64,000 bases of DNA from positions 2,945,001-3,009,000 of the forward strand of contig NZ_CP054856.1 of assembly GCF_018417475.1 (NCBI RefSeq). The letters are read 5' to 3'. This DNA is from Novosphingobium decolorationis (GTDB lineage Bacteria; Pseudomonadota; Alphaproteobacteria; Sphingomonadales; Sphingomonadaceae). The notes under the pieces were generated by a model. It saw nothing but the letters and a program-made list of their open reading frames with translations, did not search any database and had not been told where the DNA came from. The position numbers and the translations under genes are program-made. Below, in pieces: positions 16,659 to 60,687 of this stretch (positions are counted from its first letter, which is position 1; the number at the start of each line of letters is the position of its first letter).

Positions 16659-16771
16659 CAAGGGGCCATCGCCCCTTGACCCCATACCGGGCGACCTCAC
16701 CATATTCGGCCACGGCGGCGCGTGGGAGGTGAGGTAGACGGTATGGGGAGCCCGAGGGCGATGGCCCTCGG
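16659..16771 (+). repeat. 113-bp palindromic intergenic repeat, copy A
   Basis: The element starts with CAAGGGGC-CATC-GCCCCTTG and ends with CCGAGGGC-GATG-GCCCTCGG, two short hairpins whose cores are reverse complements of one another. Between them lie CCTCACC...GGTGAGG and, in this copy, CCCCATACC...GGTATGGGG, also inverted. Three more copies of exactly 113 bp lie at 32241, 38963 and 60575. This copy sits between convergent gene ends (cydX and the sulfur operon). Confidence 0.9.
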
Positions 16772-16864
16772 AATCCTGTCCTGGTCGTCCTGCCCTGTTC
16801 GCCAAGCTGGCAGATACAAAGATCCCGGCCGAGGCCGGGATCATGTTCTCTCAGGTAACGCGCC

Positions 16865-17026
16865 TCAGTGCGTGGCGGCCGTTTCCGCCCGCGCCTTGCG
16901 CCACCTCTGGAAGGTCTTTTCCGAGATGCCGCCGACCTCGCGGCAGCTTTCGACCACGCCCTTGCCCTGCGCGATGAGGGCGAGGATCGCCTGGCACCTG
17001 GCCTCCTTGTCGGGGATCGCGCTCAC
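16865..17026 (-). CDS. Mini helix-turn-helix protein at the end of the sulfur operon
   Basis: A 53-residue reading frame starting at a GTG that overlaps the stop of the TSUP gene (GTGA). The sequence SAIPDKEARCQAILALIAQGKGV...SCREVGGISEKTFQRWRKARAE reads as a helix-turn-helix like those of small terminase or transposase N-terminal domains, with Trp42 and basic residues in the recognition helix. It has two cysteines (11 and 28). Translation coupling to the TSUP gene suggests it is real. I do not recognise a named family; a regulatory role or a mobile-element remnant are both possible. Confidence 0.6.
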   Translation of the reverse strand: MSAIPDKEARCQAILALIAQGKGVVESCREVGGISEKTFQRWRKARAETAATH

Positions 17027-17814
17027 AGGACGCCGCCGGACTTCAGCAGCATGTAGATGGCGACGACGAAGATGAGGACGGCAAAGACCGTGGTGAGCAG
17101 GCCCTGGCCGGAGAGGCGCCGGGCGGTCCAGGTGCCGCCAAAGCCGCCGAGTACGCCCCCTGCGATGAGAACGGCGGCCAGCATCCAGTCGACGAGGCCC
17201 GAGAGCGCGTAGTTGGCCGCGGTGGTGAGGCCAAAGGCGGTTACCGCGACGAGGCTGGTGCCCACCGCGTTGATCATCGGCATCGAGGTCGAGGCGATCA
17301 GGCCGGGCACGATGAGGAAGCCTCCACCGATCCCGAAGAAGCCCGAGAAGGCTCCGGTGCCAAGTCCGAAGCCCAGCACCTTGGGGGCGTTCTCGCGATT
17401 GCACTGCGCGCCGGGGATGCCCATGTTGCGCCGTCCCCGGATCATCAGGCCGCCCACCACCATCATCACGAGCGCGAAGAGGAAGAGCAGTTTCTGCCCG
17501 TCGATGGCCTTGCCCAGGGTCGAGCCGAGGAAGGCGCCGAAGATCCCGGCAAAGGCGTACATCCCCCCGCAGCGCCACTTCACGTTGCCCGAGCGCGCGT
17601 GCTGGATGAGCCCGGTTGCCGCGTTGATCGCCACGGCAAAGGCGCTTGTCCCGATGGCGACGTGGGGGCTGGGCACGCCGACAAGATAGACCATCAGCGG
17701 CACGGCCAGGATCGAGCCGCCCCCACCGACAAGGCCCAGGGTGAAGCCCACGAGAACGCCCGAGAAGGCGCCGAGGAGCAGGTAGGCGAGGTCGATGTGG
17801 GAGGCGTCGGGCAT
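17023..17814 (-). CDS. TSUP-family (TauE/SafE) sulfur-compound exporter
   Basis: Inner-membrane transporter of the TauE/SafE family, which moves sulfite, thiosulfate or other sulfur organics. The 263 residues have about eight helices and the two TSUP repeats, marked by GFTLGLVGGGGSILAVPLM near the N-terminus and FSGFFGIGGGFLIVPGL in the middle. It lies 38 bases downstream of the SQR fusion gene on the same strand, which points to export of sulfite or thiosulfate made by sulfide oxidation. Confidence 0.9.
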   Translation of the reverse strand: MPDASHIDLAYLLLGAFSGVLVGFTLGLVGGGGSILAVPLMVYLVGVPSPHVAIGTSAFAVAINAATGLIQHARSGNVKWRCGGMYAFAGIFGAFLGSTLGKAIDGQKLLFLFALVMMVVGGLMIRGRRNMGIPGAQCNRENAPKVLGFGLGTGAFSGFFGIGGGFLIVPGLIASTSMPMINAVGTSLVAVTAFGLTTAANYALSGLVDWMLAAVLIAGGVLGGFGGTWTARRLSGQGLLTTVFAVLIFVVAIYMLLKSGGVL

Positions 17815-17852
17815 GGCAGTGGACCGGTTCAGCTGGGGGAGGGATCAGGCGT

Positions 17853-19439: not shown

Positions 19440-19483
19440 GCGCGCTTCTCCTGGAATATGCGTACTTCTGAGGTGGGGGGGAA

Positions 19484-19900: not shown

Positions 19901-19901
19901 G

Positions 19902-20354: not shown

Positions 20355-20391
20355 GAGGGGGGCTTTCTGTCTTTCTGGAAAAAAGGCTGCT

Positions 20392-27623: not shown

Positions 27624-29345
27624 GTGAAGAACCGCCTTCTCCTCCTTGCCGCGCTGGGCCTCTCGGCCTGCTCCTCCACGTCCTACTCCGGGCCCGACAT
27701 GCCCAAGGGCACCGCGCTGCCCCCGCCCGAGCGGCCTGTCGCGGACGAGACGGCGGACGCGCTGCCGAGCAAGGCCAGGGCGATCATGGCGGAGGTGACC
27801 GCCACGCTCTCCTCCGATGCGCTGGAGGGCCGCGCGCCCAGCACCGCGATCGAGCCCAAGGTGCTCGATGCGATCATCACCCGCTTCAAGGCCGCCGGAT
27901 TGCAGCCGGGCAATCACGGCGAGTGGCTGCAGGAGGTCCCCACGGTCGAGATCACCGCGACCGATCCCACCCCGATGGCGGTGACGGGCAAGGGCACCTC
28001 GCAGACCTTCGGCTACGGCGATGGCTACGTCGCGGCGAGCTACCGCGTCGTGCCCGAGACGCGCATCGCGGACAGCGAACTGGTCTTCGTGGGTTATGGC
28101 ATCAACGCGCCCGAACTGGGCTGGAACGACTACGCCGGGATCGACATGAAGGGGAAGACCGCGGTCATCCTCGTCAACGATCCCGATTACGCTGCGCAAA
28201 CCGAGGACGGGCTCTTCAAGGGGCGGCGCATGACCTACTACGGGCGCTGGACCTACAAGTTCGAGGAAGCGGCCCGGCAGGGCGCCGATGCCGCACTGAT
28301 CGTGCATGACACCTTCCCGGCCGCCTATGGCTGGAACGTCGTCAACTCCAGCTGGACCGGCGCGCAGTATTACGTCCAGACCCCGGACGACGGGGCGAGC
28401 GCGACGAAGGCCAACGGCTGGATCCAGAAGGCGGTCGCCGAGACCTTGCTGAAGAGCGCGGGGCAGGACCTTTCGGCACTGAGCGAAGCGGCGAGGCGGC
28501 CCGGCTTCAAGCCGGTGCCGCTGGGCCTCAAGGTCCGCTTCGGGTTCGACAACACGGTGCGCAAGTCCTCCTCGCACAACGTGGTGGGCGTGCTCCCCGG
28601 CACCGAGCGCCCGGATGAATACGTGCTCTATACCGGGCACTGGGATCACCTAGGCCACTGCACGCCCGATGCGAGCGGGGACGACATCTGCAATGGCGCG
28701 GTCGATAACGCGACCGGGATTGGCGCGCTGACCGCACTGGCGAATGCCAACGTCGAGGCAGGGGCCACCGCGCGCAGTCAGGTGTTCCTCGCCGTGACGC
28801 TGGAGGAATCGGGGCTGCTGGGCTCGGAATACTATGCGGCCAACCCGGTCTTCCCGCTCGATCATACGGTGGGCGGGGTGAACATGGACGCGCTGCTGCC
28901 CGGCCCCCGTGCGCGCAGTTTTGCGATGGTGGGGGGCGACAAGTCGGACCTGACCGCGCTGTTCCGCGCAGCGCTGGCTGATGAGGGGCTGGGCGAAGTG
29001 CCCGAAGACCACTCGGAGCGGGGCAGCTACTACCGCTCGGACCACTTCTCCTTTGCCAAGCGGGGCGTGCCGATGTTCAACTTCGAGCGCAGCACCGACC
29101 TCGTCGAAGGCGGGCGTGCGGCGGGCGATGCGCTTTCCGAAGACTATGTCACCAACCGCTACCACGCCCCGTCCGACGAATATTCGGCGGACTGGAACTG
29201 GGATGGCATTGTCCAGGAGGTGTCGCTCTTCTATCGGCTCGGCCGCGATCTCGCCGATTCGGACAGTTGGCCGAACTGGCACGAGGACGATGAATTTAGG
29301 GCCGTGCGCGACAAGGCATGCGCGGCATCCCAAGGAGGCTGTTGA
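27624..29345 (+). CDS. M28-family zinc peptidase, lipoprotein
   Basis: Probable aminopeptidase or glutaminyl cyclase-like peptidase on the outer side of the inner membrane or in the outer membrane. The 573 residues begin with a lipoprotein signal, MKNRLLLLAALGLSAC16 (lipobox LSAC). A protease-associated insert (about 130-270) and an M28 core follow, with zinc-ligand motifs GHWDHLG, GAVDNATGIGAL, EESGLLGSEY and YHAPSDEY. The start is a GTG at 27624 with AGGGGA upstream, because no ATG lies near the signal sequence. The next gene starts two bases after its stop. Confidence 0.9.
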   Translation: MKNRLLLLAALGLSACSSTSYSGPDMPKGTALPPPERPVADETADALPSKARAIMAEVTATLSSDALEGRAPSTAIEPKVLDAIITRFKAAGLQPGNHGEWLQEVPTVEITATDPTPMAVTGKGTSQTFGYGDGYVAASYRVVPETRIADSELVFVGYGINAPELGWNDYAGIDMKGKTAVILVNDPDYAAQTEDGLFKGRRMTYYGRWTYKFEEAARQGADAALIVHDTFPAAYGWNVVNSSWTGAQYYVQTPDDGASATKANGWIQKAVAETLLKSAGQDLSALSEAARRPGFKPVPLGLKVRFGFDNTVRKSSSHNVVGVLPGTERPDEYVLYTGHWDHLGHCTPDASGDDICNGAVDNATGIGALTALANANVEAGATARSQVFLAVTLEESGLLGSEYYAANPVFPLDHTVGGVNMDALLPGPRARSFAMVGGDKSDLTALFRAALADEGLGEVPEDHSERGSYYRSDHFSFAKRGVPMFNFERSTDLVEGGRAAGDALSEDYVTNRYHAPSDEYSADWNWDGIVQEVSLFYRLGRDLADSDSWPNWHEDDEFRAVRDKACAASQGGC

Positions 29346-29346
29346 G

Positions 29347-30339
29347 TTGTCTTTCGCCCTTCCCCCCGAGTGGCACCCGCAGGACTGGATCTGGATCGGC
29401 TTCCCGCACGATCCGGTCGAATGGCCCGGCTTCCTGGAGGCTGCGCAGGAGCAGATGGCGCAGTTCGCCAGCGTCGTGGCCGAAGCGGGCCAGGAAGTGC
29501 GTCTGATCGTGCGCGACGAGGCCAACCGCGCGCGTGCGGCTTCGCTCATCTCCGACAAGGTCACGCTGGAGGTGCGCCGCTACGGCGATGTCTGGCTGCG
29601 CGATACAGGGCCTCTGGTGACGATGGACGCCAAGGGCGCGCGCAAGGCGATGCGCTTCGGCTTCAACGGCTGGGGCGGCAAGTACCTGATGGACGGCGAC
29701 CAGGAAATCGGCGCCGAGCTCGCCCGTGATGCCGGACTGGCCGTCGAGACGGCGGACTGGGTCCTTGAAGGCGGCGCGCTTGACGGCGATGGCACCGGCC
29801 TTGTCGCCACGACCGAGCAGTGCCTGCTCAACCCCAACCGCAACCCGCACCTCACACGCCAGGATCTGGAACTGCGCCTGGAGCGCGATCTGGGCTACGA
29901 CAAGGTGCTGTGGCTGGGCGATGGCCTCATCAACGACCACACCGACGGGCATGTCGACAACCTCGCGCGCTTCGTCGCCCCGGGCGTCCTCGCCCTGCCG
30001 CGCGCGACCGGCGTGGACGATCCCAACGCGGCGATCTACGCCGATGCCAAGGCCCGCGCCGAGGCGATGGGCGTGCGCGTGGCCGAAGTTCCCTCGCCGG
30101 GCCGTGTCGAAACGGACGGGCGGATCGAGCCCGCCAGCTACATGAACTTTGCGATCACCTCGAACCTGGTGGTCGTGCCCATTTACGGTACGAAGTACGA
30201 CGAGGAAGGCGTCACCGCCATCGCCGAGCTGTTCCCCGACCGTGATACGGTCGGCGTAATGGCCGATGCGGTGCTTGCGGGCGGCGGTTCGTTCCACTGT
30301 TCGAGCCAGCAGATGCCCTCGCTTCCCAGCGGTGATTAA
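29347..30339 (+). CDS. aguA: Agmatine deiminase / peptidyl-arginine deiminase family protein
   Basis: Guanidine-group hydrolase that converts agmatine to N-carbamoylputrescine and ammonia. The 330 residues show the family active site: WLRDTGP, the NDHTDGHVDN loop with Asp and His, and the nucleophile Cys318 in GGGSFHCSSQQMP. The start is a TTG at 29347 behind a strong AAGGAGG (29332). No ATG fits, since the first conserved residues (LPPEWHPQDWIWIGFPH) follow immediately. No N-carbamoylputrescine amidase gene is seen nearby. The exact substrate is inferred from the family. Confidence 0.88.
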   Translation: MSFALPPEWHPQDWIWIGFPHDPVEWPGFLEAAQEQMAQFASVVAEAGQEVRLIVRDEANRARAASLISDKVTLEVRRYGDVWLRDTGPLVTMDAKGARKAMRFGFNGWGGKYLMDGDQEIGAELARDAGLAVETADWVLEGGALDGDGTGLVATTEQCLLNPNRNPHLTRQDLELRLERDLGYDKVLWLGDGLINDHTDGHVDNLARFVAPGVLALPRATGVDDPNAAIYADAKARAEAMGVRVAEVPSPGRVETDGRIEPASYMNFAITSNLVVVPIYGTKYDEEGVTAIAELFPDRDTVGVMADAVLAGGGSFHCSSQQMPSLPSGD

Positions 30340-30373
30340 CGCTTTTGCAAGGGCTCGGGCGCATAGCAGCGTC

Positions 30374-30523
30374 ATGGCCCGAGTCCTTGCCCTTGCCTTC
30401 CCGTTCACGCGGCGCCCGGCCCTGCCGGTGGCGCAGGGCGTAGCGCAGGATGTGGCGCGCGGCCTGGTCGTGGCGGGCTGTGCGCTCGCGCTGATTCTCG
30501 CCGGGGTCGATCTCGGGCTCTGA
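30374..30523 (+). CDS. Possible 49-residue membrane peptide
   Basis: A short frame MARVLALAFPFTRRPALPVAQG... with a hydrophobic C-terminal half (GLVVAGCALALILAGVDLGL) that could span the membrane. It follows aguA after 34 bases but has no clear ribosome site and no recognisable family. It may be a chance reading frame in GC-rich DNA. Confidence 0.3.
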   Translation: MARVLALAFPFTRRPALPVAQGVAQDVARGLVVAGCALALILAGVDLGL

Positions 30524-30724
30524 GCCCGCGGCATTTTTCGGACATTTCATCGGATTGACGGGGAAGGTCTTTGCACAGGGCCTTCCGGCGCGCTGTTGGC
30601 CGCGTCTGATGCACTGCACAACCTCTCTATCGCAGTGCAGCAAGATTTCGTCGCAATCGGCTGATGCAGGCGTAACCAAGGCTTCCCACTTTCCCTCCTC
30701 GACACCACATCTGGGAGTGTGAAC

Positions 30725-30967
30725 ATGCGCCAATTCAGTGAAGCCGAAAGCGCCGCAGGGCGCGAAGCGCTCGTCGGCAACTTTCTCCTGTTCCTGTTCG
30801 GGTGCGGGGTACTGGCCTTCTTCGTCTCGGTGGACCGGGTCGACTGGCTGCGCATCCGTCCGGCCAGCGGCAGTTCAGCTGCCATGGCGCAGGCCGGTGC
30901 CAAGCCTGCATCCGTGCCCCTGATCGAACGCGCCGAACCGCGCAAAGGAGACGTCCGAAACCCATGA
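30725..30967 (+). CDS. Small single-span membrane protein paired with bestrophin
   Basis: An 80-residue protein with one strong hydrophobic stretch (about residues 19-35, LVGNFLLFLFGCGVLAFFVSV), then an Ala/Pro-rich region. GGGAG lies seven bases before ATG 30725. The stop overlaps the bestrophin start (ATGA), which supports genuine translation and a functional link. No family is recognised; it could be a small auxiliary subunit of the channel, but that is inference. Confidence 0.65.
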   Translation: MRQFSEAESAAGREALVGNFLLFLFGCGVLAFFVSVDRVDWLRIRPASGSSAAMAQAGAKPASVPLIERAEPRKGDVRNP

Positions 30968-31851
30968 TCGTTACTTCGGCCCCCCGTCCGGCCCGCATCA
31001 TCCGCGAAGTCTGGAAGCCGCTGGCCGTCCTGTTCGTGTGGGACGTGATCGTCACGTTCACCTACTACGTCCTGCCTTTCGACGCTCCCGAGCTGCCGGT
31101 GACGCTGTTTGGTTCCGCGCTCGCGCTGTTCCTGGGCTTTCGCAGCAACTCGGCCTACAACCGCTGGTGGGAAGGCCGCCAGCTCTGGGGCCTGATGATC
31201 AACGCGAGCCGCAACATCGCGCGCGGGGCCCGCAACTTCCTGCCCGACCCGGAAGGGGAGGATTACAAGCGGCGTATTGTCCTGCGCCAGATTGCCTATG
31301 TTCACGCGCTGCGCTGCCAGCTGAGGCGCCAGAAGCCCGACGAAGAAGTGATCCGCCTCCTTCCCCGGCACGAGGCGGACCTAGCGCTCCAGCGCACCAA
31401 CGTCGCCAACGGCATTCTCGATGGCACTGGTCAGCGCATCGACGAGGCGCGCCGCAAGGGCTGGATCGACACCATCCAGCAGGCCCAGATGGAGGCAGTT
31501 CTGGTCGACATCGCCAATTCGCAAGGGGGCATGGAGCGCCTCAAGAACACGCCGCTGCCCCACCAGTACCGCTGGCTGCCCACGGTCTTCACGCATATGT
31601 TCTGCGTGCTGCTCCCCATCGGGCTGGTCGAGACGCTGCAGTTTGCAACGCCGCTCGGCTCCACGCTGGCGGGCGCAATGTTCCTTGCCGTCCTCACCAT
31701 CGGCGATGAACTGGTGGATCCCTTTGCCAACGACGTCCACGACCTGCCGCTCAACCAGATGTGCCGCACGATCGAGATCGACCTCCTGCAGTGCATCGGC
31801 GAGGAGGCGCCCGAGCCGCTCAAGCCGGGGAAGGACGGCGTGCTCTGGTAA
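30964..31851 (+). CDS. Bestrophin-family ion channel protein
   Basis: Homologue of bacterial bestrophins (YneE/DUF2254-unrelated, Bestrophin/UPF0187 family), which form pentameric ion channels in the inner membrane. The 295-residue product has the N-terminal helix pair (VLFVWDVIVTFTYYVLPF), the family signature SALALFLGFRSNSAYNRWWEGRQLWG, and the C-terminal GDELVDPFANDVHDLPLN motif that forms the calcium-clasp-like acidic loop in animal bestrophins. The ion carried cannot be told from sequence; bacterial members conduct cations in known cases. Confidence 0.92.
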   Translation: MIVTSAPRPARIIREVWKPLAVLFVWDVIVTFTYYVLPFDAPELPVTLFGSALALFLGFRSNSAYNRWWEGRQLWGLMINASRNIARGARNFLPDPEGEDYKRRIVLRQIAYVHALRCQLRRQKPDEEVIRLLPRHEADLALQRTNVANGILDGTGQRIDEARRKGWIDTIQQAQMEAVLVDIANSQGGMERLKNTPLPHQYRWLPTVFTHMFCVLLPIGLVETLQFATPLGSTLAGAMFLAVLTIGDELVDPFANDVHDLPLNQMCRTIEIDLLQCIGEEAPEPLKPGKDGVLW

Positions 31852-31891
31852 GCGCTTGCCCTGCGCGGGCCCTCGGCGCATAGGCTGGTCC

Positions 31892-32233
31892 ATGGCACGA
31901 GCAGATCGTCTTGAACGCATGGACCGCCGCCGCGAGGAGGCCGAAGAGGAATACACCGCCGCGCTGATTGGCGCGCTCAAGGTGACCGCCGCCGGGCAGT
32001 GGGGCCTCTTCGGGCACACCCGCGACAAGACCCACGTGGCCAAGGCCAAGCCGCTGCTTGCCGAACTGGAGGAGCTGGCCGACGAGATCGCGGACCTGCG
32101 CGAACGGCTCGACCTCGAACCCTTCGCGCTCCACGCCGAGTTCCTTGCCGCGCGCGGGCCGGTGAATTCCCATGCGGTGGGTGAGCCCAAGCAGGCGCAG
32201 GCCTGGCTCGCGCGGCTGGAACAGGATCAGTAA
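31892..32233 (+). CDS. Conserved hypothetical helical protein
   Basis: A 113-residue soluble, charged protein, MARADRLERMDRRREEAEEEYTAAL..., with predicted long helices and a heptad-like segment around ELEELADEIADLRERLDLEPF that could form a coiled coil. No function is recognised. It follows the bestrophin gene after 40 bases and ends seven bases before repeat copy B. Confidence 0.7.
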   Translation: MARADRLERMDRRREEAEEEYTAALIGALKVTAAGQWGLFGHTRDKTHVAKAKPLLAELEELADEIADLRERLDLEPFALHAEFLAARGPVNSHAVGEPKQAQAWLARLEQDQ

Positions 32234-32240
32234 GGTCGGT

Positions 32241-32353
32241 CCGAGGGCCATCGCCCTCGGGCTCCCCAACCTGTCTGGCTCACCTTGCGTGCGCCTCGGT
32301 GGCTGAAAGAGGTGAGGTTGCCCCTTGTGGGGTCAAGGAGCGATGGCCCCTTG
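32241..32353 (-). repeat. 113-bp palindromic intergenic repeat, copy B
   Basis: Same element as copy A in inverse orientation, 113 bp. The left stem contains one G-U wobble (AAGGGGC/GCTCCTT); the right stem CCGAGGGC/GCCCTCGG is unchanged. It fills the gap between two convergent genes. Confidence 0.9.
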
Positions 32354-32370
32354 AAGCGGTTTTCCTGTTT

Positions 32371-33255
32371 CTACCCCAACTCGAATGTCGTGATCCCGTA
32401 GATCCGCTTCTCGTCGAGCGCGGGCGCTTGTCCCAGGTACATGCGCGCGCAGCCGAAGACCTCGCGCAGGCCGTGGCGTTTCACCAGCGCCATCGCGCCC
32501 GGGTGCGTCTCGGGCACGTCGAGAGTGACGAGGCCGTCCTTGCCATGTGCGGCCAGCGCGCAGAAGAGCGCTTCGGCGGCCTCGTCGTCATCGGCGAAGA
32601 GCGGGCCGATCTTGGTGCCTTCGCGGCAGGGGCGGATCGTGCCGAAGCCGGCCAGTTTCCCGTCCTTCACATAGCCCAGCGAAAGGGCCCCCTCCTGCGC
32701 GATCCAGCGTTCGAGGAACGGCTCGCGCGGGGCGGGAAAGCAGGTGCGGTCGTAGGCTGCGACCTCGGCGAAAGGCACTTCGGACAGCGGGACCAGGGCG
32801 GCATCGGCGCGCATCGCGGCCTCGGTTGTCGGCCAGTCGGTGGGGATCGTGAACTGGAAGCGCAGGTCGCGGTGCGCGAAGACGAAGCCGCCCTTGGCGT
32901 AGTAGTCCTGCATCGTGAAGACGCCGTCCATGCCGATGGGGCGTCCCGGTTTCAGGCGCGAGAGCAGCATCTCGCGCCGGTTCTGCCACAGCCGGTCGCC
33001 CAGGCCCTGCCCGCGCCAGTCGGGGCGCACGATGAAGAAGCCCATGAACCCGAACTCGCCGCCGTAGGAGGCGATGGTGCCCCCGCCGATCAGTTCGCCG
33101 TCCATCTCGGCGGCGATGAAGGCGTTGGGCTCGGCCTCCCAGAACAGGTCGGCATCGTGCAGGCCCGGGTTCCAGCCTTCGTTCGCCGCCCATTCGACAA
33201 GGCGGTTGGCTTCGCGGCGGGTCATGGCGCGGATGGTGAGGTCGCTGAGCGTCAT
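32371..33255 (-). CDS. GNAT-family N-acetyltransferase (tandem domain)
   Basis: A 294-residue protein with an N-terminal GNAT domain carrying the acetyl-CoA loop V-R-P-D-W-R-G-Q-G-L-G-D near residue 80, and a C-terminal Acetyltransf_18-like domain (about 150-290). The substrate is unknown. The start MTLSDLTIRAMTRREANRLVEWAANEGWNPG (33255) begins the conserved domain. It is the last gene of the minus-strand group that begins with thrS, 110 bases after the spermidine-synthase-like gene. Confidence 0.85.
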   Translation of the reverse strand: MTLSDLTIRAMTRREANRLVEWAANEGWNPGLHDADLFWEAEPNAFIAAEMDGELIGGGTIASYGGEFGFMGFFIVRPDWRGQGLGDRLWQNRREMLLSRLKPGRPIGMDGVFTMQDYYAKGGFVFAHRDLRFQFTIPTDWPTTEAAMRADAALVPLSEVPFAEVAAYDRTCFPAPREPFLERWIAQEGALSLGYVKDGKLAGFGTIRPCREGTKIGPLFADDDEAAEALFCALAAHGKDGLVTLDVPETHPGAMALVKRHGLREVFGCARMYLGQAPALDEKRIYGITTFELG

Positions 33256-33365
33256 GCCGGGCAACCTAATGCGCCTGCGCCGATTTGCCAGCGATGTTGC
33301 GTCGCGGGCGTGCAAGTCTTTCTATCGGCGCAACAGCATCGCCCCGAAGATGGCGAGATGCAGGG

Positions 33366-34040
33366 CTATTCGCGGATCGTGGCGAACCAGATGACGTGCT
33401 TGGGCCCCTTGCCGTTCGAGCGCGAGGCGACCTTGCGCTCCTCGACCGCGAAACCGGCGCGTTCGAGCCGGCGGGTGAAGTCGGGATCGGGCCCGGCGGA
33501 CCAGATCGCGAGCACGCCGTCGGGCGTCAGCGCGCGCTTGGCGGCGCGCAGGCCGGACTTGGAATAGAGGACATTGTTGTCCTCGCGCACAAGGCCGTCG
33601 GGGCCATTGTCGACATCGAGCAGGATGGCATCGTAATCGCCTTCCGCGCCCGCGATGAAGGGGGCCACGTCGGAGAGGATCAGGTTGACGCGCGGATCAT
33701 CGAGGCAGCCTGCCTCCAGCTCCTTCATCGGGCCCTTCGCCCATTCGATGATCTCGGGCACGATCTCGACCACGGTGGCCTTGCCGTTCTCGGGCAGGAC
33801 CCGCAGCGCGGCGCGCAGGGTGAAGCCCATGCCATAGCCGCCAATCAGCATGTGCGGGCGCCTGGCGTGCTTGATGCGCTCGAAGCTCATCGTCGCCAGC
33901 GCCTCTTCGGAGCCCCACTTGCGGGTCGACATGAGTTCATTGTGGCCAAGGACGATCATGAAGTCCTTGTCGTGGCGGTAGAGTTCGAGCTTTTCGCCGT
34001 CCGGCACCCATGCCGTATCGAGGAGTTCGCGCTGGATCAT
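33366..34040 (-). CDS. Spermidine-synthase-fold protein
   Basis: A 224-residue class I methyltransferase-fold protein of the spermidine synthase superfamily. It has the nucleotide loop MLIGGYGMGFTLRAALRVLP, acidic VVEIVPEIIEWAKG, and the D-x-x-L-L-D-V-D-N-G-P segment. The usual SpeE motifs for putrescine binding are altered, so true polyamine synthesis is not assured. It follows the small GNAT gene after three bases. Confidence 0.8.
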   Translation of the reverse strand: MIQRELLDTAWVPDGEKLELYRHDKDFMIVLGHNELMSTRKWGSEEALATMSFERIKHARRPHMLIGGYGMGFTLRAALRVLPENGKATVVEIVPEIIEWAKGPMKELEAGCLDDPRVNLILSDVAPFIAGAEGDYDAILLDVDNGPDGLVREDNNVLYSKSGLRAAKRALTPDGVLAIWSAGPDPDFTRRLERAGFAVEERKVASRSNGKGPKHVIWFATIRE

Positions 34041-34043
34041 GGT

Positions 34044-34474
34044 TCAGCCTTCATAGCACAGGTGGACGATGGGAAAGGGACGCCCCTCGGCGTCGGTCGG
34101 GGAGCGGCCGGTGCGCACGAAGCCGCGCGCAAGGTAGAAGGGCAGGGCGTTGTCGGCCTGCTCGTTGGCATCGACGCGCGGGGCCGGGTGCAGCTCGAGC
34201 GCCTTGCCGACCAGCGCGGAGCCGAAACCCTGTCCGTGGACGTCGGGGTGGACGAAGAGCGCCTCGATCATGTCGCCGTCAAAGACCAGGAAGCCCTGAA
34301 CCATGCCCTTGGCGTCCTCGGCCACCCAGAGGGCGACCTCGGGGAGCATGGCCGCGACCTGGACCTCGATCTGCGCGCGCTCGTCCGGGGAAAGAAAGCC
34401 GTGCGTGGCCACGACGGCCGCGCGCCAGATATCCAGCGCGCGGGAAACGTCGCGGGGCTCGCCCGGCCGGAGGA

Positions 34475-34478
<4 letters not shown>
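34044..34478 (-). CDS. Small GNAT-family N-acetyltransferase
   Basis: A 144-residue single-domain acetyltransferase: [22 protein letters not shown] at the start, acetyl-CoA loop [14 protein letters not shown], and the C-terminal [13 protein letters not shown] strand-turn typical of GNAT. The start is a GTG at 34478 overlapping the thrS stop by four bases, so it is coupled to thrS. The substrate is not known; it resembles YjaB/YiaC-like proteins. Confidence 0.85.
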
Positions 34479-36487
<2,009 letters not shown>

Positions 36488-36868
36488 CGAACTCGTCTTT
36501 CGCTCCTGGGCCGCGCGGGCGGTGCCTTGGGCCTTTGGCACAAGCGCACGCCTCGCGGAAGGTCCGGCGTCGGCTATTTTGGCTTGGGATCGGGAGAATG
36601 ACGCCACATCGCCCGAGCCCGGGCAACGGCGCTGCGTGGTCTCAGCCCACGACCTGCCGTGCCCGGGCGCGCCGGGTGGTGGTGGTCGTGGTGGGTGTTA
36701 CACGCTTGGTCATCGAACGCGCTTCTAGCAGGGAAGTGCCCGCGAGTCACGCGGCCCGGCCCGCTGGGGCCACGCCGTCGGCCGACCTGTCATTATGTCA
36801 ACTATACTTGACACGACTCGCGGTGCAATGACAAGCAAGCTTTACACAAAAGCAAGGGAGCTTGTCGT
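36488..36868. other. Intergenic region between thrS and the micro-operon
   Basis: The 381-base region holds the divergent promoters of thrS and of the small operon starting at 36869. The distinctive part is the palindrome at 36796-36813; a TATACT sequence, close to a -10 consensus, lies within it. No gene or RNA is recognised in 36488-36790, where the short frames lack family matches. Confidence 0.5.
36796..36813. promoter_or_regulatory. Operator palindrome overlapping a -10-like element
   Basis: The perfect inverted repeat TGTCAA-CTATAC-TTGACA contains TATACT at 36803-36808. It lies 55 bases before the first gene of a small operon that encodes an XRE-type regulator, so autoregulation through this site is the natural guess. 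Confidence 0.6.
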
Positions 36869-37036
36869 ATGTCCCGTAATGTTTCGCTGCTCTGGGGTGG
36901 CGGCGTGATCGCCGTGGCCCTTCTCAACATCGCCGAGGTCCTGCCCGACTGGACCACGATTGCCGCAATCCTGACCATGCCCGCGATGGTGGCCCTGCGC
37001 ATCCGCAAGGGGCGCACGCACGGGAAAGGGTGCTGA
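36869..37036 (+). CDS. Small membrane protein, 55 residues
   Basis: MSRNVSLLWGGGVIAVALLNIAEVLPDW... with two short hydrophobic stretches (about 6-22 and 28-43), then a basic tail (RIRKGRTHGKG). AGGGAG lies eight bases before ATG 36869. No family is recognised. It overlaps or abuts the next membrane-protein gene, the first of a four-gene unit read in the same direction. Confidence 0.65.
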   Translation: MSRNVSLLWGGGVIAVALLNIAEVLPDWTTIAAILTMPAMVALRIRKGRTHGKGC

Positions 37037-37038
37037 GC

Positions 37039-37461
37039 GTGGGCCTCTCGAGCACAAATCCGGCGTATCGCCGCTATCTGCGGCGCTTCATTCCGATCAC
37101 GTTTGTCTACGTGGCCCTGTTCGCGCTGGCGACCTGGGTGATCCCTGACGACGCCCCGGCCAGCGTGCTGACGGTGGGTGTCGCGATCCTGCCGGGGCTG
37201 GCCGTCCTGGGCTGGATCTGGGCGATGGCGCGGCTGCTGGTCGAACTTCAGGATGAGTATCTACGCATGCTGGAAGTGCGCAAGTTCCTGGTCGCGACAG
37301 CGCTGACGCTGGCGGTTTGCAGCGTCTGGGGCATTCTCGAACTCTATTCGCCCCAGGTGCCGAAGCTCCCGATCTTCTTCGTATTCCCAATGTGGTGCGC
37401 AGGGCTGGGGCTGGGAATGGTGGTCAACAAGCTGACGCTTGGCGATGCGGGGTGCATGTGA
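37039..37461 (+). CDS. Four-helix membrane protein, partner of XRE regulator
   Basis: A 140-residue protein with four predicted helices (about 15-33, 42-66, 80-98 and 108-128). It begins at GTG 37039 with AAAGGG upstream; GTG 37030, overlapping the previous gene, is an alternative. Membrane proteins of this kind are often encoded next to a small YozG-like XRE regulator and are thought to control or sense for it. The stop overlaps the regulator's GTG start. Confidence 0.75.
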   Translation: MGLSSTNPAYRRYLRRFIPITFVYVALFALATWVIPDDAPASVLTVGVAILPGLAVLGWIWAMARLLVELQDEYLRMLEVRKFLVATALTLAVCSVWGILELYSPQVPKLPIFFVFPMWCAGLGLGMVVNKLTLGDAGCM

Positions 37462-37652
37462 AGAACCGCCTGAAAGTCCTGCGGGCCGAGCGTGGCTGGA
37501 GCCAGCAGGACCTGGCCGGAAAGCTCGATGTCTCGCGCCAGAGCATCAACGCCATCGAGACGGGACGTTACGATCCCTCGCTGCCGCTGGCCTTTCGTAT
37601 TGCCGAAGTATTCGAACTTGCGATAGAAGAGATCTTCCTGAGAGGAGAGTAA
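37458..37652 (+). CDS. Small XRE-type (YozG-like) transcriptional regulator
   Basis: A 64-residue helix-turn-helix protein, MKNRLKVLRAERGWSQQDLAGKLDVSRQSINAIETGRYDPSLPLAFRIAEVFELAIEEIF. It is a minimal Cro/C1-like domain of the YozG type. The GTG start overlaps the previous stop (GTGA). It likely binds the palindrome at 36796-36813 upstream of its own operon. Confidence 0.9.
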   Translation: MKNRLKVLRAERGWSQQDLAGKLDVSRQSINAIETGRYDPSLPLAFRIAEVFELAIEEIFLRGE

Positions 37653-37654
37653 CG

Positions 37655-37858
37655 ATGCCGCGCGCATCTCGTCCCGTTCGTACACGGCTGCTCATGCTGG
37701 CCGCTTCGCTGGCCCTGTTCGCAGGGCTGAGGGCGCTTGCATTTGAGCGTTTGGGCGCCGAAAGCGTCGCATCGGACATCACGGGCGCGCCGATCTACGC
37801 GATCACGCAGACGGGCAATCACATCCTTGTCGAGGTCGTGAGCCCGATTCTCTACTGA
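37655..37858 (+). CDS. Small single-span membrane or secreted protein
   Basis: A 67-residue protein with a basic N-terminus and one hydrophobic segment (about 12-28, LLMLAASLALFAGLRAL), then a short polar domain. It may be a signal anchor. AGAGGAG lies six bases upstream of ATG 37655 and the gene follows the regulator by two bases. Its 3' end overlaps the convergent gene by seven bases. Function unknown. Confidence 0.65.
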   Translation: MPRASRPVRTRLLMLAASLALFAGLRALAFERLGAESVASDITGAPIYAITQTGNHILVEVVSPILY

Positions 37859-38898: not shown

Positions 38899-38962
38899 GG
38901 CGAATTTTCGTAGATGCGGCGGCGAAGGTGGGCAAGGGGGCGTGAAGAAGGAAGATAGGATT

Positions 38963-39075
38963 CAAGGGGTTATTACCCCTTGACCCCCAAAAGGGCGTCC
39001 TCACCTTCCACACGCCGCTATGGCTGAGATACGCGCGGTCGCCTGTTCGGGGAGCCCGAGGGCAATGGCCCTCGG
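38963..39075 (+). repeat. 113-bp palindromic intergenic repeat, copy C
   Basis: Same length and arrangement as copies A, B and D. In the left hairpin the closing C-G pair is changed to T-A (AAGGGGT-TATT-ACCCCTT), a compensatory change, while the right hairpin keeps its 8-bp stem with loop CAATG-type change. The middle is more diverged. Unlike the others it lies between divergent genes. Confidence 0.88.
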
Positions 39076-39119
39076 ATCTCTCCTTGCCCTTCTCGGTCCC
39101 AGCCCCCACCTTGCGCGCC

Positions 39120-39872
39120 ATGACCGAGATCCGCTTCCACGAAATGGCCGATGGCCGCCGCATCGCCCACCGCTTCGCGCCCGGACAGGGCCCCACGCTC
39201 GTCTTCCTGCCGGGCTACATGTCCGACATGTCGGGCAGCAAGGCGACGGCGCTGTTCGAAATGGCCGTCCACACCGGCCGCGCCTGCCTGCTTGTCGACT
39301 ATTCGGGCTGCGGGGCGAGTGACGGCGATTTCGCCGACGGCACGCTCAGCCGCTGGCGCGACGAGGTGGTGGCCGTGATCGAGGCCGCCGCGCTCGACAA
39401 GGTGGTCCTGATCGGCTCCTCGATGGGCGGCTGGCTGATGCTGATGGTAGCCGATGCCCTGCCCGACAAGGTCCACTCGATGATCGGCATTGCCGCCGCG
39501 CCCGATTTCACCGACTGGGGCATCGCGCAGATGGACAAGGGACTGCTTGCCGATGGTGAGACCATCTACGAAGACAATCCCTATGGTCCCGAACCCACGC
39601 CGACCCACCCCGCCTTCTGGGCCGACGGGCAGGCGAACCTCCAGCTGGAAGCACCGATCGAGTTCTACGGTCCGGTGCGTCTCCTCCACGGCCAGCGCGA
39701 CGAGGACGTGCCTTTCGACCTTTCGCTGCGCCTGTGCGAAATGCTGCGTTCAGACGATGTGCAGGTGACTTTCATCAAGGACGGCGACCACCGCCTTTCG
39801 CGCGAGACCGATATCGCGGTTCTCATGCGCACCGTGGCCGACCTGCTTCTGGCCCGTGACCCGGAAAGCTGA
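39120..39872 (+). CDS. Alpha/beta-hydrolase
   Basis: A 250-residue serine hydrolase. The nucleophile elbow is GSS-M-G-G (around residue 99), the acid is likely in HGQRDEDVPF, and the histidine lies in KDGDHRLSR near the C-terminus. A long-chain esterase or serine aminopeptidase-like role is possible, but the substrate is not known. ATG 39120 (MTEIRFHEMADGRR) begins the domain; the upstream frame runs into repeat copy C. Confidence 0.88.
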   Translation: MTEIRFHEMADGRRIAHRFAPGQGPTLVFLPGYMSDMSGSKATALFEMAVHTGRACLLVDYSGCGASDGDFADGTLSRWRDEVVAVIEAAALDKVVLIGSSMGGWLMLMVADALPDKVHSMIGIAAAPDFTDWGIAQMDKGLLADGETIYEDNPYGPEPTPTHPAFWADGQANLQLEAPIEFYGPVRLLHGQRDEDVPFDLSLRLCEMLRSDDVQVTFIKDGDHRLSRETDIAVLMRTVADLLLARDPES

Positions 39873-39906
39873 TCGTCCGCACGGCCGACCGGAGACGTAA
39901 CCCTCG

Positions 39907-40776
39907 ATGTCGATTTCGCTGCTTCTGATGCCCCTTCTCGCCCAGGCGGCGGGGACCATCGGCTCGCCCTATGCCTCTTCGCTTCCGCTCGAGATCATCG
40001 AGAAGAAGAACGACGAGGCGCGCAAGCAGGCGCAGGAGCGGGCCTATGCCGGGCCCGCCGCGCCGGTCAGCCGCAAGGGGTGCATGGACCTTGTCCAGTC
40101 CGATCCGCAAGGCTCGGCCAATCTGGCGCAGGAGGCCCTCTATGAGGCGATGGGGCGCGAACGCGTGCGCGCCGGCCTGTGCCTGGGCGCGGCGCTCACC
40201 GTGCTGGAACGCTTCGACGAGGCGCGCGAGGCTTTCGTCACCGCGCGCGATGCGACCGAGGCCGAGGACCACGTCAGCCGCGCGCGGCTGGGCGACATGG
40301 CGGCCAACGCCGAACTGGCACAGGGCAATGGCGCCAAGGCGCTGCTGCTGCTGGGCCCCGCACTCACCGAGGCCAAGGCGAGCGGCGATGACCGCGTTCT
40401 CGCCGAAGTCCAGATCGACCGCGCGCGCGGGCTTGTCGCCGTCGACCAGGCCGAGCAGGCGGCCGATGCCCTTGCGGCGGCGCGCGTTGCCGATCCGGAG
40501 AACGCGCAGGCCTGGCTTCTTTCGGCGACGCTCGCGCGGCGCCAAGACCAGCTGATCGTCGCTTCGGGCCAGATCGAGACGGCGGCCAAACTGGCACCGC
40601 GCGATCCGGCCGTCGGCCTGGAGGCGGGCGTGATCGCGATGCTTTCGGGCGAGGCGGATGCCGCGCGCCGCAGCTGGCAGTCGGTACTGGACGTCGCCCC
40701 GCAGAGCCCGGAAGCCCAGACCGCCAAGACCTATCTTGCGCAGACGGCCCCCGATGATGGGCCGGAGCGCCCCTGA
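39907..40776 (+). CDS. TPR-repeat protein, exported
   Basis: A 289-residue protein with a short N-terminal hydrophobic segment (MSISLLLMPLLAQAAG), probably a signal peptide, and repeated Ala-rich helical pairs from about residue 70 that fit tetratricopeptide repeats (for example LGAALTVLERFDEAREAFVTAR and LARRQDQLIVASGQIETAAKLAPRDP). TPR proteins scaffold protein contacts; the partner here is unknown. Confidence 0.8.
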   Translation: MSISLLLMPLLAQAAGTIGSPYASSLPLEIIEKKNDEARKQAQERAYAGPAAPVSRKGCMDLVQSDPQGSANLAQEALYEAMGRERVRAGLCLGAALTVLERFDEAREAFVTARDATEAEDHVSRARLGDMAANAELAQGNGAKALLLLGPALTEAKASGDDRVLAEVQIDRARGLVAVDQAEQAADALAAARVADPENAQAWLLSATLARRQDQLIVASGQIETAAKLAPRDPAVGLEAGVIAMLSGEADAARRSWQSVLDVAPQSPEAQTAKTYLAQTAPDDGPERP

Positions 40777-40797
40777 GACACCAGACTACGGATAACG

Positions 40798-41784
40798 ATG
40801 CCCATGGTACCCCTTTCGGTTCTCGACCTTGTCACCGTTCGCGAAGGCGACAGCGTGGCCCGCTCGCTCGACATCACCGTCGATACCGCCAAGGCCGCCG
40901 AAGCCAACGGCTTCAAGCGTTACTGGGTGGCCGAGCACCACGGCATGGCGGGGATTGCGGGCGGAGCGACCTCGGTCGTGCTTGCGCACATCGGCAACGC
41001 GACCAGCACGATCCGCATCGGCGCGGGCGGGATCATGTTGCCCAACCACACGCCCTACGTGATCGCCGAGCAGTTCGGCACGCTTTCGGCGATGTTCCCG
41101 GGCCGCGTGGACCTGGGGCTGGGCCGTGCGGCGGGCGCGGACGGGCGGCTGGCGAACGCCTTGCGCAAGGACATCGTGAGCGCGTCGGAACGCTTCCCGC
41201 AGGACGTTGTCGAACTGCGCGCCCGCTTTGCCGGGCAGGCCGTAGGCGGCGTGGAATCCCCGCAGGCAAGCGGGGCGGATGCGGAAATGTGGATCCTGGG
41301 CTCCAGCCTCTTCGGCGCGCAGCTCGCCGCCATGCTGGGTCTTCCCTATGCCTTCGCTTCGCACTTCGCGCCCACCCATCTGGACGAGGCCGCGCGCATC
41401 TACCGCGAGCGCTTCGAGCCGTCCGAATTTTGCGACAAGCCCTATTTCATGGCCGCGATCAACACGATGGCCGCCGAGACCGAAGAGGAGGCCTGGTACC
41501 TCTCCTCCTCGACCGACCAGAGCTTCGTCGCGCTGCGCACGGGTAGTCCCGGCAAGCTGCAGCCGCCGCTGCGCAATTACCGCGAAAGTCTCCCCGCTCC
41601 GGCGCGCGCAATGCTCGAGCAGATGCGCGGTGTCGCCGCCGTCGGCACGCCCGACCAGGTGCGCGCGGGGCTCGAGGCCTTTGTCGCGCGTACGCAGGCT
41701 GACGAGCTGATCCTGAGCGCCTCGACCTTCGATCCCGCCGCGCAGATCCGCTCGCTCGAACTGATCGCCGGGGCGCTCGACTGA
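40798..41784 (+). CDS. LLM-class flavin-dependent monooxygenase (luciferase-like)
   Basis: A 328-residue TIM-barrel flavoprotein of the bacterial luciferase-like superfamily (MsnO8/YhbW-type). Recognisable regions are [51 protein letters not shown] and [18 protein letters not shown]. It uses reduced FMN and O2 on an unknown substrate. It is followed 94 bases later by a ferredoxin-reductase gene, but a joint pathway is not shown. Confidence 0.88.
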
Positions 41785-56686: not shown

Positions 56687-56692
56687 GCCGCG

Positions 56693-59134: not shown

Positions 59135-59502
59135 CTGCTCTCCTCTAGGTGTATTTCGTATCAGGAACTGGACTTATGGCATCAATCTGCAATCGATGCT
59201 GCCCCTTAACTGCGTGCGGACTTGAAAAGATTGCGCGGGAGTAGGGGCAAAACGGAAGGCGCACGTTGCAGGCTTGCCGCACACACCGCATGCGGTCTTT
59301 GGCGTGTGTTGCGTGAAATCGACAGGCCGTGCCGGGAACGTCGTCTCACTTGACCCGGGCAATTGACGAACGGGGGCTTCGCGCATAGCCGGGTAGGCAC
59401 TTCCCCCATGTGTGCTACGCTTCACCCCCGAAGCCGTGGCCCGACTATCCGGCCCATCGCTGTGCGAACGCGGGCATGAGCCGCCAGACAAGGACGATAC
59501 CC
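59135..59502. other. Divergent region between the MscS-like and MlaA-like genes
   Basis: The 368-base region holds no convincing gene. It carries a perfect 12-base palindrome ACCGCATGCGGT (59285-59296), extended by flanking ACAC...GTGT bases, a possible regulatory site. No promoter motif is clear enough to name. Confidence 0.4.
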
Positions 59503-60564
59503 ATGAGCCTGACGGCCGCTGCCGCCGCGTTGATGATCGGCTCCGCCATCCCCCAGGCGGTCGCGCAGGGACCCGAGGACACGCCTGTCCCGGCCGCGCA
59601 GGAGGCAATGCCGCAAGCCGAACAGGCGCCTCTCGCCGCGCCCGAAACGGTTACGGACGAACCCGGTGCGTCCGATGCGCAAACGGGCGATCAGGGGCTC
59701 GAAGGTTCGGAAATCATCGTGACTCGCCGCCCCGGTGCGCCTCCGGGCGATCCGCTCGAGGCGATCAACGAAACCTCGTTCCAGGTCGTCCAGTCGGTTG
59801 ACAAGGCGGTCGTCGAGCCGGTCGCCAAGGCCTACAACAAGGGCATCCCGCATCCGGTGCGCGAAGGCCTGCGCAATGTCTTCTCCAACCTCCAGGAGCC
59901 GGTGGTCTTTGCGGCCTACATGCTGGAATTGAAGCCGGGCAAGGCGCTGGAGACGGCAGGGCGCTTCCTCATCAATTCGACGCTGGGCCTCGCCGGCATC
60001 ATCGATGTGGCCAAGCGCAAGCCCTTCAACCTGCCCTACCGGCCCAATGGCCTGGCCAATGTGCTGGGGTACTATGGCGTCGGGCCGGGGCCCTACATGT
60101 ATCTGCCGATCATCGGCCCGACGACGGTGCGCGACCTCATCGGCGATTCGATCGACCGGCTGGCCTCGCCCGCCATGCTGGGCAAGCCCTTTACCAAGCC
60201 CGAGGTGGCGATCCCGATGATCACGCTGGCGCAATTGGGCGAACGCGCGGCCTTCGACGACGAGATCAACCGCATCCGCGATACCGACAACCCTTACGCG
60301 ACCTATCGCGAACTCTACCTGCGCCAGCGCGAGGCCGAGATCGAGGCGCTGCACGGTCGGATCATGCCCGATGTCGTGCCGGTCTATGGCCGCATGATGC
60401 CGACCGCAGGCAGTGAGCCCCAGGATACGCCGGAGCTGATCGAAACCCCTGAGACGCCCGAGCCTGCCGCACCCGCGGCCATTGCAACGCCCGTGGAGCC
60501 GACGATCCGTTATGTCTCGGAGCCGGTCGTGCAGCCGCTGCCGGAAGGGTACGGGAACATCTAG
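59503..60564 (+). CDS. MlaA (VacJ)-family protein without lipobox
   Basis: Outer-membrane lipid-asymmetry protein (Mla pathway). The 353 residues contain a signal peptide (MSLTAAAAALMIGSAIPQAVAQ), an acidic linker of about 70 residues, and the MlaA domain: DPLEAINETSFQVVQSVDKAVVEPVAKAYNKGIPHPVREGLRNVFSNLQEP, RFLINSTLGLAGIIDVAK and LGYYGVGPGPYMYLPIIGPTTVRD. No cysteine is present, so it cannot be lipidated like MlaA of enteric bacteria. A long acidic/proline-rich C-terminal tail follows. The start could also be ATG 59476. Repeat copy D follows its stop. Confidence 0.9.
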   Translation: MSLTAAAAALMIGSAIPQAVAQGPEDTPVPAAQEAMPQAEQAPLAAPETVTDEPGASDAQTGDQGLEGSEIIVTRRPGAPPGDPLEAINETSFQVVQSVDKAVVEPVAKAYNKGIPHPVREGLRNVFSNLQEPVVFAAYMLELKPGKALETAGRFLINSTLGLAGIIDVAKRKPFNLPYRPNGLANVLGYYGVGPGPYMYLPIIGPTTVRDLIGDSIDRLASPAMLGKPFTKPEVAIPMITLAQLGERAAFDDEINRIRDTDNPYATYRELYLRQREAEIEALHGRIMPDVVPVYGRMMPTAGSEPQDTPELIETPETPEPAAPAAIATPVEPTIRYVSEPVVQPLPEGYGNI

Positions 60565-60574
60565 AAAGATGGAT

Positions 60575-60687
60575 CCGAGGGCCATCGCCCTCGGGCTCCC
60601 CGAACGGTCGACCTCACCTTCCGAGCGCGCTGTGGCTTGAGAAAGGTGAGGTCGCCGATTCCGGGGTCAAGGGGCGATGGCCCCTTG
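60575..60687 (-). repeat. 113-bp palindromic intergenic repeat, copy D
   Basis: Same 113-bp element in the same orientation as copy B. Here the inner pair of arms reads CCCCG...CGGGG where copies A and B read CCCCA...TGGGG, a compensatory change. It fills the gap between two convergent genes. Confidence 0.9.

What the first reader, a model, noticed from the sequence alone, without database searches (positions are those of the whole stretch)
16659..60687. A 113-bp intergenic palindromic element in four copies with covarying stems
Copies at 16659-16771, 32241-32353, 38963-39075 and 60575-60687 are all exactly 113 bp. Each has a left hairpin AAGGGGC-CATC-GCCCCTT, an inner CCTCACC/GGTGAGG pair, a CCCC/GGGG pair and a right hairpin CCGAGGGC-GATG-GCCCTCGG. 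In the left stem C-G becomes T-A in copy C, and copy B keeps pairing through a G-U wobble; the inner arms change from CCCCA/TGGGG (A, B) to CCCCG/CGGGG (D). The cores of the two hairpins are reverse complements of each other, so the whole element can also fold as one large dyad. Equal length plus compensatory changes indicate selection on structure. Three copies lie between convergent genes. I know of no named family; it resembles REP/BIME elements in kind.
Basis: seen in the sequence. Interest (0 to 1): 0.75.

Follow-up and report, generated by a model that had tools for sequence, protein, structure and literature searches.

The report
Hairpin-ended repeats, some carrying genes
A fixed-length DNA repeat scattered over the chromosome of a Novosphingobium bacterium, usually wedged between the ends of two facing genes, belongs to a family of hairpin-ended elements whose insides change much faster than their ends and some of which carry genes that differ between close species.

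Summary
Four 113-bp elements sit at the stated places (B and D inverted). They belong to a family seen only in Novosphingobium and a few related MAGs; the own genome has 193 right-type hairpins. Length is exactly 113 bp in 63 of 76 copies that I extracted. Of 71 gene gaps that hold one, 44 are convergent; each end is followed outward by a T/C-rich, G-poor tract. Listed copies cluster around the replication origin. Against a species 92-95% identical, 53 of 76 sites are shared in the same orientation and 3 inverted, so the family is old and inherited. Hairpin stems differ by 1-3%, flanks 8%, the spacer 22%. Strict compensatory change was not seen between orthologues.

It resembles REP/BIME/REPIN elements in kind, but lacks their tags, and no RAYT (Y1) transposase was found in seven element-bearing genomes.

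Unexpectedly, relatives with the same or related ends bracket low-GC genes. At six sites anchored on both sides the interior is unrelated between species while flanks and ends match; one cargo block recurs at non-orthologous sites, starting at the hairpin. I read the 113-bp copies as empty forms of a hairpin-ended element whose ends act at transcript ends and whose interior is exchanged by recombination; both functions are inferred.

The parts
16659..16771 (+). Copy A, 113 bp, between convergent genes; left hairpin 16659-16678, right hairpin 16752-16771
   Evidence: (129.9 bits); shared with EaN21-2 L265
32241..32353 (-). Copy B, 113 bp, inverted orientation, between convergent genes (7 and 17 bp from their called ends); right hairpin 32241-32260, left hairpin 32334-32353
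   Evidence: (112.9 bits); shared with EaN21-2 L265
38963..39075 (+). Copy C, 113 bp, between divergent genes; left hairpin 38963-38982 (GGTTATTA variant), right hairpin 39056-39075; spacer 56% identical to its orthologue while the 70-bp flanks and the hairpins are nearly identical
   Evidence: (97.6 bits)
60575..60687 (-). Copy D, 113 bp, inverted orientation, 10 bp from the called end of each convergent gene; right hairpin 60575-60594, left hairpin 60668-60687
   Evidence: (113.9 bits); orthologous site not in my sample of the relative
60555..60574 (-). Example of an outward tract: 20 bases next to the right hairpin of copy D, pyrimidine-rich when read outward
   Evidence: family-wide
60688..60707 (+). 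Example of an outward tract: 20 bases next to the left hairpin of copy D, pyrimidine-rich when read outward
   Evidence: family-wide

Best explanation
The four copies are members of an old, vertically inherited, non-autonomous family of hairpin-ended elements. Each end is a conserved module: a subterminal block, an 8-bp hairpin with a CATC/GATG-type loop, then an outward T/C-rich, G-poor tract. Shown: conservation of sites, placement between gene ends, low divergence of the hairpins, and a rapidly changing interior. Inferred: the ends work as outward 3'-end modules on both strands (transcript ends, protection of the 3' end, or a transcription boundary), which is why they are kept at convergent genes. 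Shown: some relatives with the same or related ends carry genes, and the interior differs between species at the same site. Inferred: interiors, both short spacers and gene cargo, are exchanged by recombination anchored in the conserved ends, so that the 113-bp copies are the empty form. The recombination route (RecA-type between ends, or a dedicated enzyme) is not known.
For: Family. Context: gene gaps with an element are 44 convergent, 21 tandem, 6 divergent of 71, and 65 of 115 distances to a called stop codon are 5-30 bp; convergent pairs are 112 of 696 gene pairs in the smaller sample. Outward tract: T 44% and G 10% at ends facing a gene's 3' end (n 75), T 46% at ends facing a 5' end (n 19), T 17% and G 30% in 468 control 3' regions; seen again in N. 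rosa (T 50%, G 3%, 41 hairpins) and MAG REEB22 (T 48%, G 4%, 36), whose elements of 182-233 bp look unrelated inside (by eye). Constraint: stems 3.0% (left) and 0.9% (right), flanks 8.4%, spacer 22% over 42 ungapped pairs. Exchange: in 20 of 42 pairs some other copy of the relative is closer in the spacer than the orthologue; two own copies 5.7 kb apart have 97% identical spacers, and both are inverted relative to the copies at their orthologous sites. Cargo.
Against: No RNA data. The consensus terminator scan did not call the ends of copies B and C, and my own stricter scan found canonical terminators in 4 of 38 convergent gaps without an element and 10 of 26 with one, so it does not show that elements replace terminators. 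Spacer identity to the orthologue is a continuum (0.56-0.97) rather than two classes, so fast mutation under weak constraint is not excluded; the allele test favours exchange only modestly (0.154 against 0.110). One of the two inverted sites just named has no homology in the near right flank. Turnover of cargo could be ordinary homologous recombination at any repeated sequence. Only one site with cargo between 113-type ends was found (L354/L357), and the own interior there also holds a DDE_3 transposase: a passenger, or less likely the source enzyme.
Confidence: 0.5

Rival explanations
1. REPIN-type mobile DNA: an inverted pair of REP sequences spread by a RAYT (Y1) transposase, now or in the past, kept as a selfish population.
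For: Inverted doublet of hairpins with a variable spacer and conserved length, as described for REPINs (PMC3116915, passages seen); high copy number; patchy within the genus. One genome with a few elements, G029 (3 matches), does have Y1_Tnp.
Against: No Y1_Tnp match in 7 of 7 element-bearing genomes tested, the own one included, while 5 of 14 control genomes ring; 40 of 129 genus genomes have one, and the own genome, G002 and G030, which carry many copies, are not among them. No conserved tetranucleotide tag. No clean empty site was found in the comparisons made.
Confidence: 0.15
2. Host-kept bidirectional 3'-end elements only: the hairpins and tracts end or protect transcripts of facing genes, and the gene-bearing forms are coincidental genes between two neighbouring elements.
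For: Placement and outward tracts; conservation of sites in EaN21-2 and BW1.
Against: The gene-bearing forms share subterminal sequence inside the hairpins with 198-208 bp empty forms, have low GC, and differ at matched sites; the same cargo block starts at the hairpin at two non-orthologous sites.
Confidence: 0.2
3. DNA-level sites (chromosome organisation, a dimeric protein's binding palindrome, gyrase or replication-related), since copies are dense around the origin.
For: 25 of the 60 own copies listed lie in 2.42-3.01 Mb, 12.7% of the chromosome (recounted, binomial p 2e-8), where GC skew changes sign and the main ParB gene lies. Palindrome symmetry is equally expected for a dimer site.
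Against: Orientation does not follow the replichores (23+/16- against 9+/12-, p 0.28). Placement tracks gene ends, not position alone. Enrichment could reflect the more stable gene order near the origin.
Confidence: 0.15

Closest known systems
REP/BIME elements, GTAG- and CGTC-tagged (PMC3733652; passages, section 15 read)
   Same: Small palindromes, high copy, intergenic, mostly between convergent or unidirectional genes; that paper reports most convergent REPs of Sphingomonas wittichii less than 20 bp from the 3' ends, head-to-head dimers predominant, and no transposase for the CGTC class.
   Different: No GTAG or CGTC tag at a fixed place beside the hairpins; fixed 113-bp unit with two unlike hairpins; gene-bearing forms with related ends.
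REPINs (PMC3116915; passages seen)
   Same: Inverted doublet, conserved ends, less conserved spacer, fold into hairpins.
   Different: No RAYT in the seven genomes tested; most sites compared are shared between species.
MITEs and mobile insertion cassettes, MICs (search listing and abstract starts only; rest recalled)
   Same: Miniature and gene-carrying forms with common ends and no transposase common to them.
   Different: No target duplication at the element edge; no source transposon with these ends identified; ends are self-palindromic hairpins.
dif modules of Acinetobacter plasmids (search listing and abstract starts; details recalled)
   Same: Genes bracketed by inversely oriented short recombination sites and shuffled.
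   Different: Chromosomal here, 20-bp hairpins instead of XerC/XerD sites; no recombinase known; dif sites were not searched for here.

Membership tests
REP (GTAG/CGTC superfamilies) | unpaired GTAG or CGTC tag (or TGTC/CCTC variant) at one end of the palindrome | tested here: not met
   76 own copies, 10 bases beside each hairpin edge; GTAG 1 and its complement CTAC 2, CGTC 4 and GACG 1, TGTC 7 and GACA 5, CCTC 7 and GAGG 8, scattered over edges
REP (GTAG/CGTC superfamilies) | intergenic, near gene 3' ends, convergent or unidirectional context | tested here: met
   (my own gene calls)
REPIN | two inverted hairpins with variable spacer forming a unit | tested here: met
REPIN | cognate RAYT (Y1_Tnp) in the genome | tested here: not met
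   0 of 7 genomes; 5 of 14 control genomes positive. Exception outside these seven: G029, 3 element matches and 2 Y1_Tnp matches
MITE | target-site duplication | tested here: not met
   72 copies, 2-9 bp, at the exact edge not above shuffles; with 0-3 bp slop somewhat above (25 against 18 for 3 bp, 8 against 4.5 for 4 bp, 4 against 1.6 for 5 bp)
MITE | terminal inverted repeats related to a known transposon | tested here: inconclusive
   ends are related inverted hairpins; nine inward pairs of 0.6-4 kb showed no shared transposase; one slot (L354) holds a DDE_3 transposase
Mobile insertion cassette | passenger gene between the ends of the miniature form | tested here: met
Mobile insertion cassette | mobilised in trans by a transposase that uses those ends | not testable with these tools
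   no candidate shown to act on these ends
Intrinsic terminator | hairpin followed within 0-2 bases by at least 5 T in 8 | tested here: not met
   (window 28000-41000): ends of copies B and C not called; the tract starts 3-6 bases out and is mixed T and C. A and D not scanned
Integron gene cassettes (attC) | attC site and integron integrase | not tested
   considered from general knowledge only
Any Rfam family | match at gathering score | tested here: not met
   whole window, 0 matches, copy A only: matches below the families' cut-offs, the best a microRNA model (29 bits, cut-off 90)

The most novel reading that the evidence does not exclude
Hairpin-bounded gene slots: a chromosomal cassette-exchange system in which the many hairpin-ended elements, nearly all empty, serve as landing and exchange places for accessory genes (SIR2-type defence-like, acetyltransferase, HTH, glyoxalase and others), insulated by outward transcript-ending tracts at both ends, and run by an enzyme or a hairpin-triggered template switch not yet described.
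Probability: 0.25. Interest if true: 0.85.

Novelty: new variant of a known kind. Interest (0 to 1): 0.6.

Why it matters
REP-like repeats are usually studied as parasites or as transcript ends. This family keeps its sites for long spans yet renews its interiors, and it has gene-bearing forms, so it links short intergenic repeats to gene exchange. It offers natural empty, short and loaded versions of related ends in close species, which makes both the exchange mechanism and the 3'-end function testable in culturable environmental bacteria.

Tried and rejected
RAYT transposase: none in own genome or six others; genus-wide presence does not track the element, G029 being the one genome seen with both. 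Kissing or long-dyad pairing of the two loops: no covariation. REP tags and target duplications at the edge: none. Terminus or replichore-orientation function: the dense zone is around the origin and orientation follows no replichore; dnaA is elsewhere. Phage or plasmid vehicle: no match in the phage collection, none in viral contigs by exact pattern, one plasmid with 3 places. Empty orthologous sites: none clean among those compared; the losses shown are partial deletions, and BW1 at the L354 site has no recognised hairpins but another sequence. An early orientation impression from the lists was an artefact of truncated listing. Canonical terminator comparison was uninformative. A DNA search with the region of copy D across 129 genus genomes gave separate matches to the two flanking genes; apart from the own genome I saw none spanning the element in the (truncated) list and did not study synteny there. 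Literature: no paper on this repeat among the listings of 10 searches (not all aimed at it), in an open-licence library only.

Dropped rows and biases: the tandem array of four copies at 1.417 Mb was counted once, left out (target-duplication test), and makes 4 'absent' rows. In one search only 42 of 53 same-orientation pairs (both exactly 113 bp) entered the per-site rates. The 24 copies were picked by match to both hairpins. Stretches, and several near the origin, were placed where copies were already known, so context counts and occupancy are not from a random sample. One search compared one strand only; one search repeated the interiors on both.
Full report
WHAT IS THERE. The four 113-bp copies are confirmed. 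B and D are inverted. In one orientation the element reads: left hairpin C-AAGGGGC-CATC-GCCCCTT-G, then ACCCC, a spacer holding CCTCACC and GGTGAGG, then GGGGAGC, and right hairpin CCGAGGGC-GATG-GCCCTCGG. In 24 aligned copies, which were picked by match to both hairpins, the left is of the AAGG kind (a few single changes) and the right of the CGAG kind.

HOW MANY AND WHERE. The right hairpin gives 193 forward and 190 reverse matches in the genome, reversed control 0 and 0 (the hairpin is nearly palindromic, so I take both strands as the same places, about 190, whole elements and solitary hairpins together). A covariance model built from the 24 copies gives 150 matches in the own genome and 150 in N. 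profundi EaN21-2, both being the cap of scored candidates, 147 in strain BW1, 62 in N. organovorum, 24 in N. profundi F72, 17 in N. rosa, 6 in MAG REEB22 and 2 in N. mangrovi HK4-1. These matches may count one element on both strands, as searches do, so they are not copy numbers. By pattern the family occurs in 10 of 61 relatives (own included) and 8 of 396 genomes drawn from the order (own included), only in the own genus of 84 genera.

GENE CONTEXT. In my sampled stretches, with a simple codon-based gene caller of my own, 32 of 49 elements lie between convergent genes, 14 between genes in tandem, 3 between divergent genes, none inside a called gene; the sample has 112, 486 and 98 such gene pairs. 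With more stretches the gaps that hold an element are 44, 21 and 6 of 71; of 115 distances to a neighbouring stop codon 65 are 5-30 bp, median 25. Much of the sample was placed where copies were known.

OUTWARD TRACTS. Reading outward from either end, bases 3-15 are 44% T and 10% G, against 17% T and 30% G in 468 control 3' regions; it holds equally where the end faces a gene's 5' end (19 ends), so it belongs to the element. N. rosa and REEB22 have a different element of 182-233 bp whose interior looks unrelated; it shares the hairpin core, a GCTCCC/GGGAGC block and the outward tract. In my own-genome sample 140 of 158 unconditioned GGGCnATnGCCC cores have 4 or 5 further pairs outside the core; three control cores total 13 places with none beyond 3. 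Outer pairs differ between lineages (CCGA, GCGA, TCGA, CAAG, there conditioned on pairing). This is the best evidence for a palindromic constraint, but it does not tell RNA from DNA. Against a terminator reading: the ends of B and C were not called by a consensus scan.

ORIGIN. GC skew turns from minus to plus near 2.75-2.83 Mb and the best ParB match is at 2.769 Mb; dnaA is at 4.003 Mb. Of the 60 own copies listed, 25 lie in 2.42-3.01 Mb (recounted; p 2e-8). Occupancy of convergent pairs in the stretches and the window is 8 of 21 near the origin and 5 of 44 elsewhere (Fisher p 0.019), but I placed several of the origin stretches where the list showed copies, so this second test is biased. In EaN21-2 the main ParB lies on the element-dense contig 6; its sites are mostly the same by descent, so this is not independent.

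INHERITANCE AND CHANGE. Against EaN21-2, of 76 own copies 53 are shared in the same orientation, 3 shared but inverted, 16 have no orthologue in my sample, 4 belong to the tandem array; of 95 EaN21-2 extractions (some twice) 62 are shared, 3 inverted, 9 are partly deleted, degraded or replaced in the own genome, 21 not in sample. Those shown lose part of the element with ragged ends. With BW1 and F72, 12 of 20 informative own sites have a full copy in the same orientation (all BW1) and 8 have none detected as full (6 BW1, 2 F72). Over 42 ungapped pairs: left stem 3.0%, right stem 0.9%, loops about 5%, spacer 22%, flanks 8.4%. In 20 of 42 the orthologue is not the closest spacer in the relative's sample. 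Copy C of the window is the extreme: flanks and hairpins nearly identical, spacer 56%. Two of the three inverted sites in the own genome, 5.7 kb apart, carry spacers 97% identical to each other with unlike flanks. I take this as copying of whole elements between sites; a mutational explanation of the general spacer divergence is not excluded.

GENE-BEARING FORMS. Nine inward-facing hairpin pairs 0.6-4 kb apart turned up among 180 adjacent inward pairs, overlapping loci counted more than once. Several share subterminal blocks: GCTCCCCAAACTGTCGA inside the left hairpin, which is also the inside of the 113-bp element's right end, and CTCTCCGATTCCGGGAGC inside the right. The second block with the start of its hairpin (up to 3 mismatches) occurs 9 times in the own genome, 11 in EaN21-2, 7 in BW1, 1 in F72, 0 in N. 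organovorum and N. rosa, control 0. Of these 28 sites 27 were fetched and 17 could be paired with a left hairpin: 7 are empty forms of 198-208 bp and 10 are 779-5026 bp long. The 5026-bp pair in L333 may join two neighbours.

CARGO SWAP. Six site comparisons are anchored on both sides and have unrelated interiors: own L327/EaN L339, own L328/EaN L344, own L334/EaN L338, EaN L341/BW1 L347, EaN L346/BW1 L349, and own L354/EaN L357, which has the 113-type ends. On both strands at E 0.001 five of these interiors show no match and L341/L347 one of 30 bp. At L327 the own genome and BW1 have the same cargo (90% identical), so the change is most simply in EaN21-2. Three further sites (L332, L333, L219/L135) are anchored on the right only. 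In five of the six, homology runs 19-97 bp past both hairpins and then stops; in L328/L344 it stops 33 bp before the left hairpin. The three empty 200-bp sites compared between own and EaN21-2 are collinear. Of 16 interiors the eleven of up to 2.3 kb have 46-57% GC (flanks 64-68%); the five longer ones 58-62%. One block of 867 bp, 95% identical, sits at non-orthologous sites in EaN21-2 (L344) and BW1 (L347) and begins at the left hairpin; one 470-bp block, 99.8% identical, sits at two EaN21-2 sites with different end types. Cargo matches: XRE helix-turn-helix, TonB_C, DUF4747, SIR2_2, GNAT, glyoxalase, DUF3800, sulfatase, TonB_C again (DUF4747, SIR2, DUF3800 and sulfatase come from sites anchored on one side), DUF695/RraB. 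The SIR2 protein resembles ThsA and LmuA defence models; of the other nine proteins given to PADLOC one gave a weak HTH match and eight nothing. No gene common to the slots was seen that could be the transposase; one slot, own L354, holds a DDE_3 transposase.

READING. The conserved thing is the end, not the inside. The simplest account is an old non-autonomous family whose ends are kept by the host as 3'-end modules between genes, while homologous recombination between many similar ends renews the inside and now and then loads a gene. REP-like in kind and place, it misses the tags and the enzyme that define REP and REPIN, and adds a gene-carrying branch. Functions are inferred; no expression data were available.

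Noticed in passing
window 16596-16635: An ordinary intrinsic-terminator-like hairpin with a T run lies about 25 bp upstream of copy A (seen by eye), so some elements stand beside a normal terminator.
   Followed up: partly
L201:17096-17715 (own genome near 1.417 Mb): Four copies of the element in a 169-bp tandem array; the relative has two at the same place (L063).
   Followed up: partly
L001, L013, L017: Right hairpins with GGGGAGC but no recognisable left half.
   Followed up: no
AP026900.1:215972-216086 (plasmid of Novosphingobium sp. MBES04): A 256-kb plasmid carries three places similar to copy D, 80% identical at the best.
   Followed up: no
L354:6873-8822 (own genome near 2.704 Mb): The slot bracketed by 113-type ends holds a DUF695/RraB protein and reading frames with HTH and DDE_3 transposase domains.
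   Followed up: partly
L219:4126-6000 and L135:1-1421: Same right end, but a DUF4747 protein plus another reading frame in one species and a SIR2-type defence-like protein in the other.
   Followed up: partly
L168:2579-2750 and L129:6594-6716: EaN21-2 elements of 172 and 123 bp with 113-type ends, possibly intermediate sizes.
   Followed up: no
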